A DNA stretch of 64,000 nt from Salinivirga cyanobacteriivorans. Lineage in GTDB: Bacteria > Bacteroidota > Bacteroidia > Bacteroidales > Salinivirgaceae. A program made the translations under genes and the position numbers. The first letter of the stretch is position 1. Each line of letters begins with the position of its first letter. Where the stretch lies: positions 4,489,001 to 4,553,000 of the forward strand of contig NZ_CP013118.1 of assembly GCF_001443605.1 (NCBI RefSeq). Direction: 5' to 3'. Of this stretch, positions 635 to 52,843 are shown one piece after another. The notes under the pieces are model-generated. The model had not been told where the DNA came from. It made no database searches and was given only the letters and a program-made list of their open reading frames with translations.

Positions 635-1834
635 ATGGATAAAAGTACACATTTTTTTGGCACATCGGTTTTCGGACAGCTGATTTCCTTAATTGATTCA
701 AAAATCATCACTACCAGTGCAAAAAAGCACAATTCAGATCACTATGTGAAGAAGTTCAAAACAAAAGATCACTTAATTAGTATGTTGTTTTGTTCTTTTG
801 CCAAATGCACATCCTTACGCGAAGTAAGTGGCGCAATGCTTGGTTTATCAGGTAAAACCAAACATTTTCAGTTAAATCATATTCCAAAGAAAAGTACCTT
901 GTCAGATTCAAATAAACGTAGAGATTGTGATGTGTTCGGAGAAATCTACAATAAGCTACTCAAACAATATGGTCATTATATTTCGGACAGCAGAATTAAA
1001 GATGTAATAAACAAACAAGTAGAGATTATTGACAGCTCAACCATCAGTTTGTTTAAGGATATATTGAAGTGTGTTGGACGGCATCCTAAAACCGGTAAAA
1101 AGAAAGGCGGTATAAAACTTCATGCAACGATAAATGTAGACGAAACTGCACCCAAGATGGTTTGGCTCACCAGTGCTGCCACTCATGACCATGTATTGTT
1201 AAATAGTCTTAAGCATAATGCAAACACAATATACGTATTTGACAAAGGCTATAATGACTACAAAGCCTTTGATAAATTTTCGCAAACAGATACAGGTTTT
1301 GTCACCCGAATAAAAGACAATGCAGCATATAAAACGCTAAATGATTGTAAGATAGAAGAACATATTCATAGTGGGGTTGAAAAAGATGAAATCATAGAAG
1401 TTCAGGTAAAATATGAGAATAACACACGCCCTTTAAAGCTGCGTAAAGTCCAGTTCTACGACAGAAACCTTAAAAGACGGTTTGAGTTTTTAACTAACTT
1501 GTTTGAAATGAGGGCTGATTTAATAGCTGCTATTTACAAACTACGATGGCAAATTGAACTTCTGTTCAAACAATTAAAACAAAATTTCCCGCTAAAATAT
1601 TTTCTCGGGGACAATGAAAATGCGATTAAAATACAGATATACTGTGCCTTAATCGCAAACCTATTGATGACTGTTATCCAAAAAACGCTCAAGAGGAAAT
1701 GGGCGTTTTCCAATTTAGTTAGCTTCTGTAAAATTCATTTGTTTAACTACATTCATTTATTCAGGTTTCTTGAGCATCCGGACAAAGATTGGCAGAAAAC
1801 TTATGACGAATTGATGCAGCCCTCTCTATTCTGA
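635..1834 (+). CDS. IS4-type DDE transposase (copy 1)
   Basis: This 399-residue transposase moves the surrounding IS. The N-terminal part (about 1-95) resembles the DUF4372-type domain found in Bacteroidota IS4 relatives. The catalytic triad of the DDE_Tnp_1 fold is visible as Asp133 (EIIDSSTI), Asp203 (VFDKGYND) and Glu308 in the Y-RW-IELLFKQLK block that defines IS4-type enzymes. The protein appears intact. It differs from the copy at 51644-52843 by only three residues, all within the first 33 (positions 4, 27 and 33). It has the same orientation as the cupredoxin gene it interrupts. Confidence 0.95.
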   Translation: MDKSTHFFGTSVFGQLISLIDSKIITTSAKKHNSDHYVKKFKTKDHLISMLFCSFAKCTSLREVSGAMLGLSGKTKHFQLNHIPKKSTLSDSNKRRDCDVFGEIYNKLLKQYGHYISDSRIKDVINKQVEIIDSSTISLFKDILKCVGRHPKTGKKKGGIKLHATINVDETAPKMVWLTSAATHDHVLLNSLKHNANTIYVFDKGYNDYKAFDKFSQTDTGFVTRIKDNAAYKTLNDCKIEEHIHSGVEKDEIIEVQVKYENNTRPLKLRKVQFYDRNLKRRFEFLTNLFEMRADLIAAIYKLRWQIELLFKQLKQNFPLKYFLGDNENAIKIQIYCALIANLLMTVIQKTLKRKWAFSNLVSFCKIHLFNYIHLFRFLEHPDKDWQKTYDELMQPSLF

Positions 1835-32817: not shown

Positions 32818-33894
32818 ATGACGAAAATATTTGATTCAGTGAAGCCAGGTGTGCTTTTTGGAAAAGATGTAACCCGTGTGTTGGAGATAGCCAAAAAAGA
32901 AAAATTTGCCATTCCTGCTGTAAATGTGGTAGGAACGAACTCTATTAATGCAGTACTGGAATCTGCTAAAACAGTAAATTCGCCAGTAATTATTCAGTTT
33001 TCAAATGGTGGAGCTTCGTTTTATGCAGGAAAAGGAATTGATTTGCCCGGGCAGGAAGCTGCTGTGGCAGGGGCTATTGCCGGTGCTTTACACGTGAATC
33101 ATATGGCAGAATTATACGGAGTACCTGTAATTTTGCATACCGATCATGCTGCAAAAAAGTTGCTGCCATGGATTGATGGTTTGTTGGATGCATCTGAAGC
33201 ACAATTCGAAGCAACCGGAAAGCCACTTTTCTCCTCGCACATGATCGACCTCTCTGAAGAAACATTAGAGGAGAACATCGAAATATGTGGAAAATATTTA
33301 GAGCGTATGGATAAAATGGGTATGACGCTGGAAATTGAACTTGGAGTTACAGGTGGAGAAGAAGATGGCGTTGATAACTCAGATGTTGATGCTTCAGCTT
33401 TGTATACGCAGCCTGAAGAAGTGTATTATGCCTGGAAAGAGTTAAGTAAAATATCGCCTAATTTTACCATAGCCGCATCGTTTGGTAATGTGCATGGCGT
33501 ATATAAACCCGGAAATGTAAAGCTAACACCCAAGATTCTCGATAATTCACAGAAATATATACAAGATAAAGAGGGAACCGTTGCCAGGCCTGTGAATTTT
33601 GTTTTTCATGGAGGTTCAGGCTCATCACTGGAAGAGATACGTGAAGCCATTGATTATGGTGTAATTAAAATGAATATCGATACCGATACGCAGTGGGCTG
33701 CATGGAATGGTGTTCGCGAATATGAAGCAAAAAACCATGATTACCTCCAGTCTCAAATCGGAAATCCTGATGGAGCGGATAATCCAAATAAAAAATATTA
33801 CGATCCCAGAAAATGGTTACGTGAGCTTGAAAAATCAATGGTTGAAAGACTTAAACAAGCTTTCGATAATTTAAATTGTATAGATAGAAATTAA
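32818..33894 (+). CDS. fbaA: Class II fructose-bisphosphate aldolase
   Basis: A 358-residue zinc aldolase of the class IIA (E. coli FbaA) type. It interconverts fructose 1,6-bisphosphate with glyceraldehyde 3-phosphate and dihydroxyacetone phosphate. Visible motifs are VILHTDHAAKKLLPW (catalytic Asp and zinc His), LEIELGVTGGEEDGVDN, the zinc His in FGNVHGVYKPGNVKL, NFVFHGGSGSS, and IKMNIDTDTQWA for phosphate binding. Length and ends match the family. It has its own terminator. The upstream region carries repeat copy B with a candidate operator. Confidence 0.97.
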   Translation: MTKIFDSVKPGVLFGKDVTRVLEIAKKEKFAIPAVNVVGTNSINAVLESAKTVNSPVIIQFSNGGASFYAGKGIDLPGQEAAVAGAIAGALHVNHMAELYGVPVILHTDHAAKKLLPWIDGLLDASEAQFEATGKPLFSSHMIDLSEETLEENIEICGKYLERMDKMGMTLEIELGVTGGEEDGVDNSDVDASALYTQPEEVYYAWKELSKISPNFTIAASFGNVHGVYKPGNVKLTPKILDNSQKYIQDKEGTVARPVNFVFHGGSGSSLEEIREAIDYGVIKMNIDTDTQWAAWNGVREYEAKNHDYLQSQIGNPDGADNPNKKYYDPRKWLRELEKSMVERLKQAFDNLNCIDRN

Positions 33895-33911
33895 GAATAA
33901 TTTAAAACAAG

Positions 33912-33947
33912 AAAGGCTGTTTGAAGTGCTCAAACAGCCTTTTTTTT
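33912..33947 (+). terminator. Aldolase terminator (copy in T1)
   Basis: An 11-bp perfect stem, AGGCTGTTTGA and TCAAACAGCCT, with a 5-nt loop and eight T. It lies 20 nt after the aldolase stop. The same hairpin recurs in T2 and T3. Confidence 0.9.
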
Positions 33948-33995
33948 GTGCATTTTATTTTTTACTGGTTACCTAATATCAACGGCATTCCATCT

Positions 33996-34739
33996 CCTGT
34001 TTTGTGCATTGGTACACCCACATTTAATTTCTATAAAAGCTATTTTTCTATTTGGTCATAAACCTACTTTTTTTGCTACAGGTCAAAAAAAGTAGGCAAA
34101 AAAAACCCGCCGCTTACAGAAAAATGCTAAAAACCTTGTCATTATGGCTAAAGTTTACGAACTCACACCGATTTTTTTTTTTGAAAAATCGGTGCTCAAA
34201 CAGCGCAAACTTTGACGCCATAATAACAAGGTTTTCTTAACGCATTTTTCTTCATGCGGCTAGCTGGCAAACTTTTTACTGCTGATCAGCGACCAGACCC
34301 AAGACAGATTGGCCAGACCAAATTACTCGTAAACTTCCCGTTTTTCACGGGACAGGCTGTGAGGACTAAAGCCATTGGCGGGCTAGCGTTAGAGTAAATC
34401 CCGATATAGAAAATCTTAGCAACTGCCTCAGCAGTTGCGCTATATTTTTATAATCGGGGTTCAATTGATATAAATGACATAAAAGAGGCTTGTCCAGCTT
34501 TTATGTGTAATTTAGTTAATTGAAAAGAGCGGGAGGAAGCGTAATTTGATCTTGAATTTTTGCGCCATCCTTCGGTCGCCGAAGGCTTGCCGCAGGTAAA
34601 ACGCTAAAGCTAAGGCGGCATGCGATTGCAACTTTTTTTCACTTCGACAAGCTCAGTGCATCGCAAGAAAAAAAGTTTAGTAAGAAAAGGTAAAACCCTC
34701 TAATAGATCTCAAGTGGGTCATGCATTGCACAAAACGGG
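33996..34739. mobile_element. Element X, copy 1: non-coding repeat with terminal inverted repeats
   Basis: The ends form an imperfect inverted repeat. The left end (33994-34021, CTCCTGTTTTGTGCATTGG...) and the reverse complement of the right end (34714-34741, CTCCCGTTTTGTGCAATGC...) match at about 22 of 28 positions. Inside are a 13-bp hairpin (34063-34096), a long foldback (34109-34260), a two-tier hairpin (34400-34458), a CCTTCGG/CCGAAGG hairpin (34569-34585) and an 11-bp outer stem (34630-34677) enclosing CACTTCGACAAGCTCAGTG. No reading frame is preserved between the two copies. It behaves like a MITE-sized non-autonomous element or a structured-RNA locus. Confidence 0.65.
34109..34260. 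repeat. Long foldback inside element X, copy 1
   Basis: Nested complementary arms occur in order: GCCGC, GAAAAATGC, AAACCTTGTCATTATGGC, AAAGTTT and CACCGATTTTT. They are answered by AAAAATCGGTG, AAACTTTG, GCCATAATAACAAGGTTT, GCATTTTTC and GCGGC. The arms pair almost throughout with small internal loops, giving a rod about 150 nt long. The matching region is repeated in copy 2 with a one-base shorter T run. Confidence 0.8.
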
Positions 34740-34765
34740 AGAAAATAGGAATAGTTTAAAACAAG

Positions 34766-34800
34766 AAAGGCTGTTTGAAGTGCTCAAACAGCCTTTTTTT
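34766..34800 (+). terminator. Duplicated terminator in T2
   Basis: Same 11-bp stem (AGGCTGTTTGA / TCAAACAGCCT) as the aldolase terminator, with seven T. It lies between the two X copies and would stop any rightward transcript of X copy 1. Confidence 0.8.
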
Positions 34801-34848
34801 GTGCATTTTATTTTTTACTGGTTACCTAATATCAACGGCATTCCATCT

Positions 34849-35591
34849 CCTGTTTTGTGCATTGGTACACCCACATTTAATTTCTATAAAAGCTATTTTT
34901 CTATTTGGTCATAAACCTACTTTTTTTGCTACAGGTCAAAAAAAGTAGGCAAAAAAAACCCGCCGCTTACAGAAAAATGCTAAAAACCTTGTCATTATGG
35001 CTAAAGTTTACGAACTCACACCGATTTTTTTTTTGAAAAATCGGTGCTCAAACAGCGCAAACTTTGACGCCATAATAACAAGGTTTTCTTAACGCATTTT
35101 TCTTCATGCGGCTAGCTGGCAAACTTTTTACTGCTGATCAGCGACCAGACCCAAGACAGATTGGCCAGACCAAATTACTCGTAAACTTCCCGTTTTTCAC
35201 GGGACAGGCTGTGAGGACTAAAGCCATTGGCGGGCTAGCGTTAGAGTAAATCCCGATATAGAAAATCTTAGCAACTGCCTCAGCAGTTGCGCTATATTTT
35301 TATAATCGGGGTTCAATTGATATAAATGACATAAAAGAGGCTTGTCCAGCTTTTATGTGTAATTTAGTTAATTGAAAAGAGCGGGAGGAAGCGTAATTTG
35401 ATCTTGAATTTTTGCGCCATCCTTCGGTCGCCGAAGGCTTGCCGCAGGTAAAACGCTAAAGCTAAGGCGGCATGCGATTGCAACTTTTTTTCACTTCGAC
35501 AAGCTCAGTGCATCGCAAGAAAAAAAGTTTAGTAAGAAAAGGTAAAACCCTCTAATAGATCTCAAGTGGGTCATGCATTGCACAAAACGGG
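34849..35591. mobile_element. Element X, copy 2
   Basis: Near-identical to copy 1, with one fewer T in the loop of the foldback. Terminal inverted repeats are at 34847-34874 and 35566-35593. It is flanked by T2 and T3, and its right boundary abuts the repeat that includes the native prohibitin 3' end. Confidence 0.65.
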
Positions 35592-35617
35592 AGAAAATAG
35601 GAATAGTTTAAAACAAG

Positions 35618-35652
35618 AAAGGCTGTTTGAAGTGCTCAAACAGCCTTTTTTT
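35618..35652. terminator. Terminator copy in T3, beyond the prohibitin gene
   Basis: Third copy of the AGGCTGTTTGA / TCAAACAGCCT hairpin. It lies just past the stop of the leftward prohibitin gene. It has T on the right and only a short A-run on the left, so it suits rightward transcripts best but may also act on prohibitin mRNA. Confidence 0.6.
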
Positions 35653-35666
35653 GTGCATTTTATTTT

Positions 35667-36482
35667 TTACTGGTTACCTAATATCAACGGCATACCATCT
35701 TCACCACTACCAATTACAATTACCTTGCTATTTGGTGATTCAGATAATTTAACTGTAGCCTCTATTCCACGCATACGGAGCAGACTTTTGGTCAAACTCG
35801 CGTTAATAATTTTGTTTGCCCGCGACTCTCCTTCGGCTTCAATACGTTTCCTTTCTGCCTCACTCTTTTCTTTTTCAAGCTTAAACTGATATGCTAAGGC
35901 TTCCTGCTCTTGTTTGAGTTTGTTCTCAATAGCCATCTTAATATCTTTTGGCAGTTGAATGGAACGAATTAAGAGGGCTCGCATATCTATGAAGTTGTTA
36001 GCTAGTTTTTTGCCTGCTTCATCAATAATCGATTGCTCTACTTCAGAACGTTTTGTGGAGTAAATTTCTTCTGCAGTGTAACGTCCTGCTACCTGTCGGA
36101 CTGTACTCCTTATTTCTGGAATAATGAGTTGGTTAATGTAATCCTGCCCAAACTGGCGATGTAAGAAAGGAATTTGTCTGTAAATAGGATTGAAACGTAC
36201 TGAAATATCTATATTCACAGAAAGGCCGTTTTTGTCAAGCACATCCATAGGTTCCTCAGACTTTTGTTCCTTTACATTGTAAGTAATAAAGTCGTTCCAT
36301 GGTGCAACAATATGAAAACCCGGTATGTAAACTTCTGCTGTATCGAGTCCGCCTCCGAACTGGCGGAAAATGATGGCACGTTCACCAGGATTTACTTTGT
36401 AAAACATACTGCTCCCGAAGAAAACTATCAGTATAAAAACACCGATAATTGCAATAATAAGTTGTTGAAGTCCTTTTTTCAT
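35667..36482 (-). CDS. Prohibitin/SPFH-domain membrane protein
   Basis: A 271-residue SPFH protein. One N-terminal transmembrane helix (about 7-28) is followed by the SPFH/band-7 domain (KVNPGERAIIFRQFGGGLD; IPGFHIVAPWNDFITYNVKEQ; ISVRFNPIY; RYTAEEIYSTKRSEVE). A helical coiled-coil region (about 185-235, KLKQEQEALAYQFKLEKEKSEAERKR) and a short tail GEDGMPLILGNQ come last. Such proteins form ring-like membrane scaffolds that modulate proteases or lipid domains. The gene follows a universal stress gene by 49 bp in the same direction. Its last codons occur twice more as orphan copies in the adjacent array. Confidence 0.93.
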   Translation of the reverse strand: MKKGLQQLIIAIIGVFILIVFFGSSMFYKVNPGERAIIFRQFGGGLDTAEVYIPGFHIVAPWNDFITYNVKEQKSEEPMDVLDKNGLSVNIDISVRFNPIYRQIPFLHRQFGQDYINQLIIPEIRSTVRQVAGRYTAEEIYSTKRSEVEQSIIDEAGKKLANNFIDMRALLIRSIQLPKDIKMAIENKLKQEQEALAYQFKLEKEKSEAERKRIEAEGESRANKIINASLTKSLLRMRGIEATVKLSESPNSKVIVIGSGEDGMPLILGNQ

Positions 36483-51643: not shown

Positions 51644-52843
51644 TCAGAATAGAGAGGGCTGCATCAATTCGTCATAAGTTTTCTGCCAATCTTTGTCCGG
51701 ATGCTCAAGAAACCTGAATAAATGAATGTAGTTAAACAAATGAATTTTACAGAAGCTAACTAAATTGGAAAACGCCCATTTCCTCTTGAGCGTTTTTTGG
51801 ATAACAGTCATCAATAGGTTTGCGATTAAGGCACAGTATATCTGTATTTTAATCGCATTTTCATTGTCCCCGAGAAAATATTTTAGCGGGAAATTTTGTT
51901 TTAATTGTTTGAACAGAAGTTCAATTTGCCATCGTAGTTTGTAAATAGCAGCTATTAAATCAGCCCTCATTTCAAACAAGTTAGTTAAAAACTCAAACCG
52001 TCTTTTAAGGTTTCTGTCGTAGAACTGGACTTTACGCAGCTTTAAAGGGCGTGTGTTATTCTCATATTTTACCTGAACTTCTATGATTTCATCTTTTTCA
52101 ACCCCACTATGAATATGTTCTTCTATCTTACAATCATTTAGCGTTTTATATGCTGCATTGTCTTTTATTCGGGTGACAAAACCTGTATCTGTTTGCGAAA
52201 ATTTATCAAAGGCTTTGTAGTCATTATAGCCTTTGTCAAATACGTATATTGTGTTTGCATTATGCTTAAGACTATTTAACAATACATGGTCATGAGTGGC
52301 AGCACTGGTGAGCCAAACCATCTTGGGTGCAGTTTCGTCTACATTTATCGTTGCATGAAGTTTTATACCGCCTTTCTTTTTACCGGTTTTAGGATGCCGT
52401 CCAACACACTTCAATATATCCTTAAACAAACTGATGGTTGAGCTGTCAATAATCTCTACTTGTTTGTTTATTACATCTTTAATTCTGCTGTCCGAAATAT
52501 AATGACCATATTGTTTGAGTAGCTTATTGTAGATTTCTCCGAACACATCACAATCTCTACGTTTATTTGAATCTGACAAGGTACTTTTCTTTGGAATATG
52601 ATTTAACTGAAAATGTTTGGTTTTACCTGATAAACCAAGCATTGCGCCACTTACTTCGCGTAAAGATGTGCATTTAGCAAAAGAACAAAACAGCATGCTA
52701 ATTAAGTGATCTTTAGTTTTAAACTTCTTTACATAGTGATCCGAACCGTGCTTTTTTGCACTTGCAGTAATGATTTTTGAATCAATTAAGGAAATCAGCT
52801 GTCCGAAAACCGATGTTCCAAAAAAATGTGTAGTTTTATCCAT
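51644..52843 (-). CDS. IS4-type DDE transposase (copy 2)
   Basis: A 399-residue intact transposase. It carries the same Asp133, Asp203 and Glu308 triad as copy 1 and differs at residues 4 (Thr), 27 (Ala) and 33 (Gly). All nucleotide differences I could find in the coding part fall in its first 200 or so bases. Beyond that the two genes read the same. This suggests a mosaic origin rather than steady divergence. Confidence 0.95.
   Translation of the reverse strand: MDKTTHFFGTSVFGQLISLIDSKIITASAKKHGSDHYVKKFKTKDHLISMLFCSFAKCTSLREVSGAMLGLSGKTKHFQLNHIPKKSTLSDSNKRRDCDVFGEIYNKLLKQYGHYISDSRIKDVINKQVEIIDSSTISLFKDILKCVGRHPKTGKKKGGIKLHATINVDETAPKMVWLTSAATHDHVLLNSLKHNANTIYVFDKGYNDYKAFDKFSQTDTGFVTRIKDNAAYKTLNDCKIEEHIHSGVEKDEIIEVQVKYENNTRPLKLRKVQFYDRNLKRRFEFLTNLFEMRADLIAAIYKLRWQIELLFKQLKQNFPLKYFLGDNENAIKIQIYCALIANLLMTVIQKTLKRKWAFSNLVSFCKIHLFNYIHLFRFLEHPDKDWQKTYDELMQPSLF

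What the first reader, a model, noticed from the sequence alone, without database searches (positions are those of the whole stretch)
33886..35700. Tandem T-X-T-X-T array of a structured non-coding repeat between fbaA and the prohibitin gene
Two near-identical X copies of about 744 bp are separated and flanked by a 109-110-bp direct repeat (T). T1 overlaps the aldolase stop, and T3 is the native prohibitin end. T1 differs from T2 and T3 at its left edge. T3 differs from T1 and T2 at its right edge (GGCATACC against GGCATTCC). A simple reading is that X entered together with a duplication of T, and then unequal exchange through T doubled the unit. The array has no protein of its own, yet each unit is densely structured. 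It may be a new mobile or RNA-producing repeat family.
Basis: partly seen in the sequence, partly recalled or inferred. Interest (0 to 1): 0.72.

Follow-up and report, generated by a model that had tools for sequence, protein, structure and literature searches.

The report
Mini-transposon with giant target duplications
The repeat is a small gene-less jumping element of a known bacterial transposon family that copies about 40 to several hundred bases of its landing site when it inserts, which here left both neighbouring genes whole and let the element multiply in tandem.

Summary
Confirmed: T1-X1-T2-X2-T3 lies at 33886-35700 (T 110/109/109 bp; X 744/743 bp). X is a non-autonomous transposable element (MITE) with the ends of an IS1634-family insertion sequence (CCTGTTTTGTGCA); T is its target-site duplication. 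In this genome 18 of 20 places with both element ends recognised have long direct repeats (about 40-283 bp), and 6 of the 18 are tandem arrays. Complete IS1634-family elements behave alike: 6 of 7 copies here (88-241 bp) and 22 of 80 named loci (40-471 bp); but 20 well-flanked named copies show none. A same-genus genome has the empty fbaA-prohibitin site with one terminator. Long variable duplications are known for IS1634 and IS1549, so this is a variant of a known kind. Apparently new: both native edges of T carry the same inverted A-R motif (32/41 and 35/41 against 0.18 background), as if each transposon end picks its own site; T covers both gene ends, so neither gene is cut; two MITEs bound a 7.4-kb inserted gene segment. 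An inner hairpin shows compensatory changes; transcription was not testable.

The parts
33886..33995 (.). T1, target-site duplication copy 1; holds the fbaA stop and its own terminator hairpin
33912..33946 (.). terminator-like hairpin with T-run inside T1 (repeated in T2 and T3)
   Evidence: sequence; one such hairpin stands between the two genes in G002
33996..34739 (.). X1, MITE copy 1 (744 bp)
33996..34021 (.). left terminal inverted repeat of X1 (CCTGTTTTGTGCA...)
34714..34739 (.). right terminal inverted repeat of X1; 25 of 26 bases as in the IS1634-family element of L200
34065..34263 (.). inner hairpin module (X 70-268) with compensatory changes among copies
34459..34563 (.). second dispersed palindromic module (X 464-568)
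34740..34848 (.). T2, hybrid copy: left edge as T3, right edge as T1
34849..35591 (.). X2, MITE copy 2 (743 bp; ends at 34849-34874 and 35566-35591)
35592..35700 (.). T3, target-site duplication copy that joins the native prohibitin end

Best explanation
X is a MITE: a non-coding mini-transposon with the terminal repeats of an IS1634-family (DDE) insertion sequence. A transposase of that kind, supplied in trans, inserted it between the convergent genes fbaA and prohibitin. The two element ends were joined to opposite strands at two A-R sites 110 bp apart, one inside the last codons of each gene. Repair synthesis copied the stretch between, so the end of fbaA, the terminator and the end of prohibitin were all duplicated and neither gene was cut (T-X-T). 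Later an unequal homologous exchange between the two T copies doubled the unit to T-X-T-X-T. Shown here: MITE anatomy, shared ends, long direct repeats around most copies, the empty site, the hybrid T2, the A-R motif at both native edges. Inferred: transposase acting in trans, each end choosing its own site, the repair synthesis, the exchange event.
For: Long repeats abut both ends in 18 of 20 two-ended places of this genome (13 by script and 5 by hand reading). Own IS1634-family ISs: 6 of 7 complete copies have repeats of 88-241 bp. In 22 of 80 named loci the script found both ends and repeats of 40-471 bp. X-type ends bracket IS1634-family transposases in G072, L200 and L188. Empty sites in G002 for the window and for L033. 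T2 is hybrid. Motif: A then A/G at 32/41 and 35/41 native edges, 0.182 inside T, 3-19 of 41 when the edges are slid. Control: 0 of 12 loci with other DDE transposases of this genome show a flanking repeat under the same kind of search.
Against: No complete autonomous element with GTGCA ends was found in G000; its own ISs have CCGGAT ends (the listing was cut). Two two-ended places here (L034, L046) and one IS (L064) lack a clean repeat. 20 named copies with at least 600 bp on both sides show no repeat, against 22 that do; two shorter ones exist (L187 16 bp, L188 10 bp). Movement was not observed.
Confidence: 0.9

Rival explanations
1. Same element, but the long T does not come from two separately chosen sites: one coordinated insertion or a replication-type process sets the distance, and the A-R motif only reflects a contact of each end in a single complex.
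For: In the complete genome the duplicating polarity dominates (18 of 20 MITE places, 6 of 7 ISs), which free choice by each end would not predict; no duplication under 40 bp is among the 41 measured.
Against: Distances spread from 40 to 471 bp with no 10.5-bp phasing (R 0.012); both edges carry the motif on their own; 34 two-ended named copies without repeat carry it too, +1 A at 31/34 and 32/34.
Confidence: 0.4
2. X is chiefly a structured RNA or regulatory repeat, and its spread is secondary.
For: Fold z -10.2; hairpin module 70-268 with 17 of 59 pairs changed on both sides, 0/500 shuffles.
Against: No Rfam family above its gathering score. Modules are swapped between copies while the ends stay. 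One-sided G-U type changes are few (6 cells against 36 two-sided), which fits DNA palindromes at least as well; the measure 'further pair types' did not exceed its shuffles (72/500).
Confidence: 0.05
3. The array is a plain segmental tandem duplication with no transposition.
For: Tandem arrays of other kinds exist in the genome (L053, 291-bp units).
Against: Element ends abut T exactly at 18 places, and G002 has T once without X.
Confidence: 0.02
4. Assembly artefact.
For: No reads were available to check.
Against: Single-contig genome rated 99.98% complete; T and X copies carry private differences; five further arrays of 2-4 units.
Confidence: 0.02

Closest known systems
IS1634 (Mycoplasma mycoides) and IS1549 (Mycobacterium smegmatis)
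   Same: IS1634-family transposase; long direct repeats of variable length, 8-514 bp depending on copy (PMC2266710, passages).
   Different: Those are full ISs; X has no transposase. Their sequences were not compared here.
ISPfe2 / composite transposon Tn6097 and ISGka5 (IS1634 family)
   Same: Same family; Tn6097 is a composite carried by two copies, as the L033 segment appears to be (PMC3281130, passages).
   Different: They make 6-bp repeats (PMC3281130; PMC8024623; passages).
Bacterial MITEs, e.g. MITECca01 of Cardinium
   Same: Gene-less, terminal repeats of a parental IS, many copies (PMC9769881, passages).
   Different: MITECca01's likely parent is ISCca4, listed there as IS982. From recall, bacterial MITEs make short duplications; here they are about 40-283 bp.
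IS1634-flanked tandem repeats of M. mycoides PG1
   Same: Tandem duplications attributed to flanking IS elements, some of them IS1634 (PMC1798306, passages).
   Different: Those are 8-24 kb segments; here the unit is one MITE plus one target duplication.

Membership tests
MITE of an IS1634-family element | no transposase gene of its own | tested here: met
   longest ORF confined to X is 62 aa
MITE of an IS1634-family element | terminal repeats matching an autonomous member | tested here: met
   X right end and L200 end agree at 25 of 26 bases; L188 likewise; G072 element has the same kind of ends
MITE of an IS1634-family element | dispersed copies | tested here: met
   82 match rows in G000, 47 in G001 and 23 in G002
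MITE of an IS1634-family element | target-site duplication and an empty site | tested here: met
MITE of an IS1634-family element | moved in trans by the partner transposase | not testable with these tools
   needs an assay
MITE of an IS1634-family element | autonomous partner with the same ends in the same genome | tested here: inconclusive
   own ISs end CCGGAT, not GTGCA; the end-pattern listing was cut
IS1634-family insertion sequence | encodes the transposase | tested here: not met
   X does not; the neighbouring family members do
IS1634/IS1549-type long direct repeats | long repeats of variable length | tested here: met
   40-471 bp, median 104, 41 insertions
non-coding RNA family | match to a curated family | tested here: not met
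   none at gathering score in the array
non-coding RNA family | pairing kept by compensatory change | tested here: met
   17 of 59 pairs, 36 cells, 0/500 shuffles, on 13 of the 18 copies found; the structure came from the same alignment, and RNA is not separated from DNA
non-coding RNA family | is transcribed | not testable with these tools
   no RNA-seq

The most novel reading that the evidence does not exclude
A clade of IS1634-family transposases inserts by two-site strand transfer: each transposon end is joined separately, 5' of its own A-R dinucleotide, to opposite strands 40 to about 470 bp apart. Long target duplication is then a built-in property that spares genes hit by both cut sites, seeds tandem amplification and lets pairs of MITEs move gene segments.
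Probability: 0.45. Interest if true: 0.7.

Novelty: new variant of a known kind. Interest (0 to 1): 0.5.

Why it matters
A 2008 review says that no mechanistic model had been proposed for the variable, long direct repeats of IS1634 and IS1549 (PMC2266710, passage). The 41 insertions measured here give a testable clue: the same inverted A-R motif at both native edges of duplications of 40 to 471 bp, in MITEs and in full ISs. They also show consequences: insertions whose two cut sites lie in two convergent genes leave both genes whole (window, L033), 6 of 18 repeat-flanked MITE places in one genome have become arrays of 2-4 units, and two MITEs appear to have moved a 7.4-kb segment with two genes.

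Tried and rejected
Helical phasing of duplication lengths: R 0.012 at 10.5 bp; nominal p 0.011 at 10.0 and 0.005 at 11.0 among six uncorrected periods, not taken as evidence. Duplications of more distant IS1634-family loci of the order: 9 loci, not resolved. Relaxed Rfam search: 26 matches, all below their gathering scores. Deletion-type insertion as the origin of copies without repeats: not decidable, since draft assembly and recombination look alike. Paper PMC93511 is not held; its title was seen only in a reference list. In G001, G004 and G005 I read the stretch beside the prohibitin gene and saw no fbaA there, without a formal search; G003 gave no match.

Rows dropped or set apart. One search gave 43 rows; two L061 rows repeat L037's place and were dropped, leaving 41 (13 own MITE, 6 own IS, 22 named). 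L037's two rows share one 3' edge. L042, L043, L044, L112 and L033 were added to the 18 by reading, but not to the motif counts; L033, with two MITEs, counts as one place. L136, L144 and L203 had long repeats that one search did not tie to both ends, and are not counted; nor are L187 (16 bp) and L188 (10 bp, read by eye). The 34 no-repeat loci are a hand list; 20 have at least 600 bp on both sides (two of them, L173 and L175, beside N gaps). L031, L036, L041, L045, L054, L109-L111 and L113 have one recognised end, none or degenerate ends and are in no count; L053 and L055-L060 matched X only in part. L057 (a 286-bp repeat at 90% around an element with other ends) was set aside. The second hairpin alignment (A3) used 20 of 20 copies, the first (A4) 13 of 18. 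G002: 3 of 5 fetched stretches show flanking repeats (65 bp at 82%, 42 bp at 95%, 56 bp at 100%); in the last only one element end was recognised.
Full report
What is there. X1 and X2 differ by one T. X begins CCTGTTTTGTGCA and ends TGCACAAAACGGG; one search gives an inverted repeat of 29 bp at 79%, counted from three bases outside X.

A family with long repeats around most copies. The own genome (one contig, 4.81 Mb) has 82 match rows to X, its own two copies included. I fetched 35 stretches around matches or end motifs. In 18 of 20 places where both ends were recognised, direct repeats abut the ends. In the 13 found by script they measure 40-283 bp. Read by hand, they measure 44 bp (L044), about 46 (L112), about 275 (L042, L043) and 166 (L033). 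Six of the 18 are arrays: window 2 units, L042 3, L043 2, L044 3 (one interrupted), L050 3, L112 4. L034 and L046 have no such repeat. Interiors are mosaics of modules shared between copies.

Which transposon. The genome has seven complete IS1634-family transposase genes and one interrupted copy. The element is 1622 bp with ends CCTGTTTTCCGGAT, and six of the seven carry repeats of 88-241 bp. The seventh (L064) lies in a CRISPR-like array without a clean repeat. X's ends, CCTGTTTTGTGCA, belong to sister elements. In 295 genomes of the order the extended end pattern occurs only here and in G072. In G072 the ends bracket a frameshifted transposase, both pieces of which pass the IS1634 cut-off. 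A scan of the species-genome collection with a transposase alignment kept the best 80 of 536 relatives. One, from Saccharicrinis sp. UBA6048 (L200, 1647 bp, 40-bp repeat), agrees with X's right end at 25 of 26 bases; L188, from an uncultured Prolixibacteraceae bacterium, does so too. In 22 of the 80 loci the script found both ends with repeats of 40-471 bp. Twelve loci with other DDE transposases of this genome show no such repeat.

Empty site and history. In G002, of the same genus, prohibitin and fbaA stand convergent with one terminator hairpin between them and no X. T1 keeps the fbaA end as in G002, and T3 joins the native prohibitin end. T2 has T3's left edge and T-run and T1's right edge, as one unequal crossover would leave. 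X1 and X2 are nearly identical while T1 and T3 have diverged, so the doubling seems younger than the insertion (inference).

How the insertion may work. At the native edges of T the first base inside T is A at 38/41 (5' edge) and 36/41 (3' edge, read inwards on the other strand). A followed by A or G stands at 32/41 and 35/41, at both edges in 26/41, against 0.182 inside T; sliding the edges gives 3-19 of 41. The motif holds in own MITEs (9 and 12 of 13), own ISs (5 and 4 of 6) and named ISs (18 and 19 of 22). In L037 an IS used the same 3' edge as a MITE before it. The simplest reading is that each 3' end of the element attacks 5' of its own A-R on opposite strands, and that repair copies the stretch between. 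This is inference. Against a free choice by each end, the complete genome shows almost only duplications. Among the named drafts, 20 well-flanked two-ended copies have no repeat, against 22 that do; their joints carry the same motif (+1 A at 31/34 and 32/34 in the wider set of 34), so they may be deletion-type products, recombinants or assembly errors.

Consequences. In the window both cut sites lie inside genes, yet both ORFs are whole because T carries both gene ends. L033 repeats this on a larger scale: a 7.36-kb segment bounded by two MITEs, with two genes (1144 and 407 aa) between them, carries an identical 166-bp repeat that overlaps the ends of two convergent genes by 78 and 84 bp. G002 has those two genes convergent with no such segment between them. 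I read the two flanking genes as a sugar transferase and an NAD synthetase, and the cargo tails as type IX secretion signals, from recall.

Structure. X folds far better than its 20 shuffles (z -10.2). The module X 70-268 keeps its pairing by two-sided changes: 17 of 59 pairs, 36 cells, 0/500 shuffles, 13 sequences; one-sided changes are 6 cells, and the count of further pair types did not exceed its shuffles (72/500). The module X 464-568 shows it less (7 of 33 pairs). This supports a maintained hairpin and does not show RNA. X's modules occur in G001 and G002 but in none of six more distant genomes tested (2 of 8): the interior looks genus-bound, while the ends are found more widely.

Literature. 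Long variable repeats are known for IS1634 and IS1549, without a model as of 2008 (PMC2266710, passages); other members make 6 bp (PMC8024623 and PMC3281130, passages). I also saw passages of PMC9769881, PMC11448079, PMC9330008 and PMC1798306. Nine searches of the open library listed no paper that I recognised as treating IS1634-family MITEs with long duplications or a motif at the duplication edges. Most subscription papers are not held, so this is weak evidence of absence.

Noticed in passing
L033:3116-10811 (G000:C1:2779115-2786810): Apparent composite transposon: two MITEs around two genes (1144 and 407 aa), flanked by an identical 166-bp repeat; G002 has the site empty.
   Followed up: partly
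L064 (G000:C1:1119779-1124191): An IS1634-family copy sits at the edge of a CRISPR-like array (28-29 bp repeats every 66 bp) without a clean target duplication; no CRISPR tool was run.
   Followed up: no
L037:796-3470 (G000:C1:2497795-2500469): Nested insertions: a MITE with a 143-bp duplication, then an IS with a 90-bp duplication that used the same 3' edge.
   Followed up: partly
L042 and L043 (G000:C1:3583000-3591000 and 2187000-2194500): Two arrays share the same T and flanking sequence at two chromosomal places, which suggests an earlier segmental duplication.
   Followed up: no
window 34459-34563 (X 464-568): A palindromic module of about 100 bp that occurs at many further places in G000, G001 and G002, some without recognised MITE ends; it may be a small repeat family of its own.
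   Followed up: partly
window 1430-1768 and 51710-52048: Two 408-aa frames with weak IS1634-model matches (E 3.9e-6), one on each strand; several near-identical scores elsewhere in the genome suggest another multi-copy IS.
   Followed up: no
L057:2500-3776 (G000:C1:4397499-4398775): A 705-bp element with different ends (CCTGCTGGCC...) between 286-bp direct repeats at 90% identity, perhaps another long-duplication MITE.
   Followed up: no
L068 (G000:C1:685168-689256): An IS1634-family copy interrupted by about 1 kb of other DNA.
   Followed up: no
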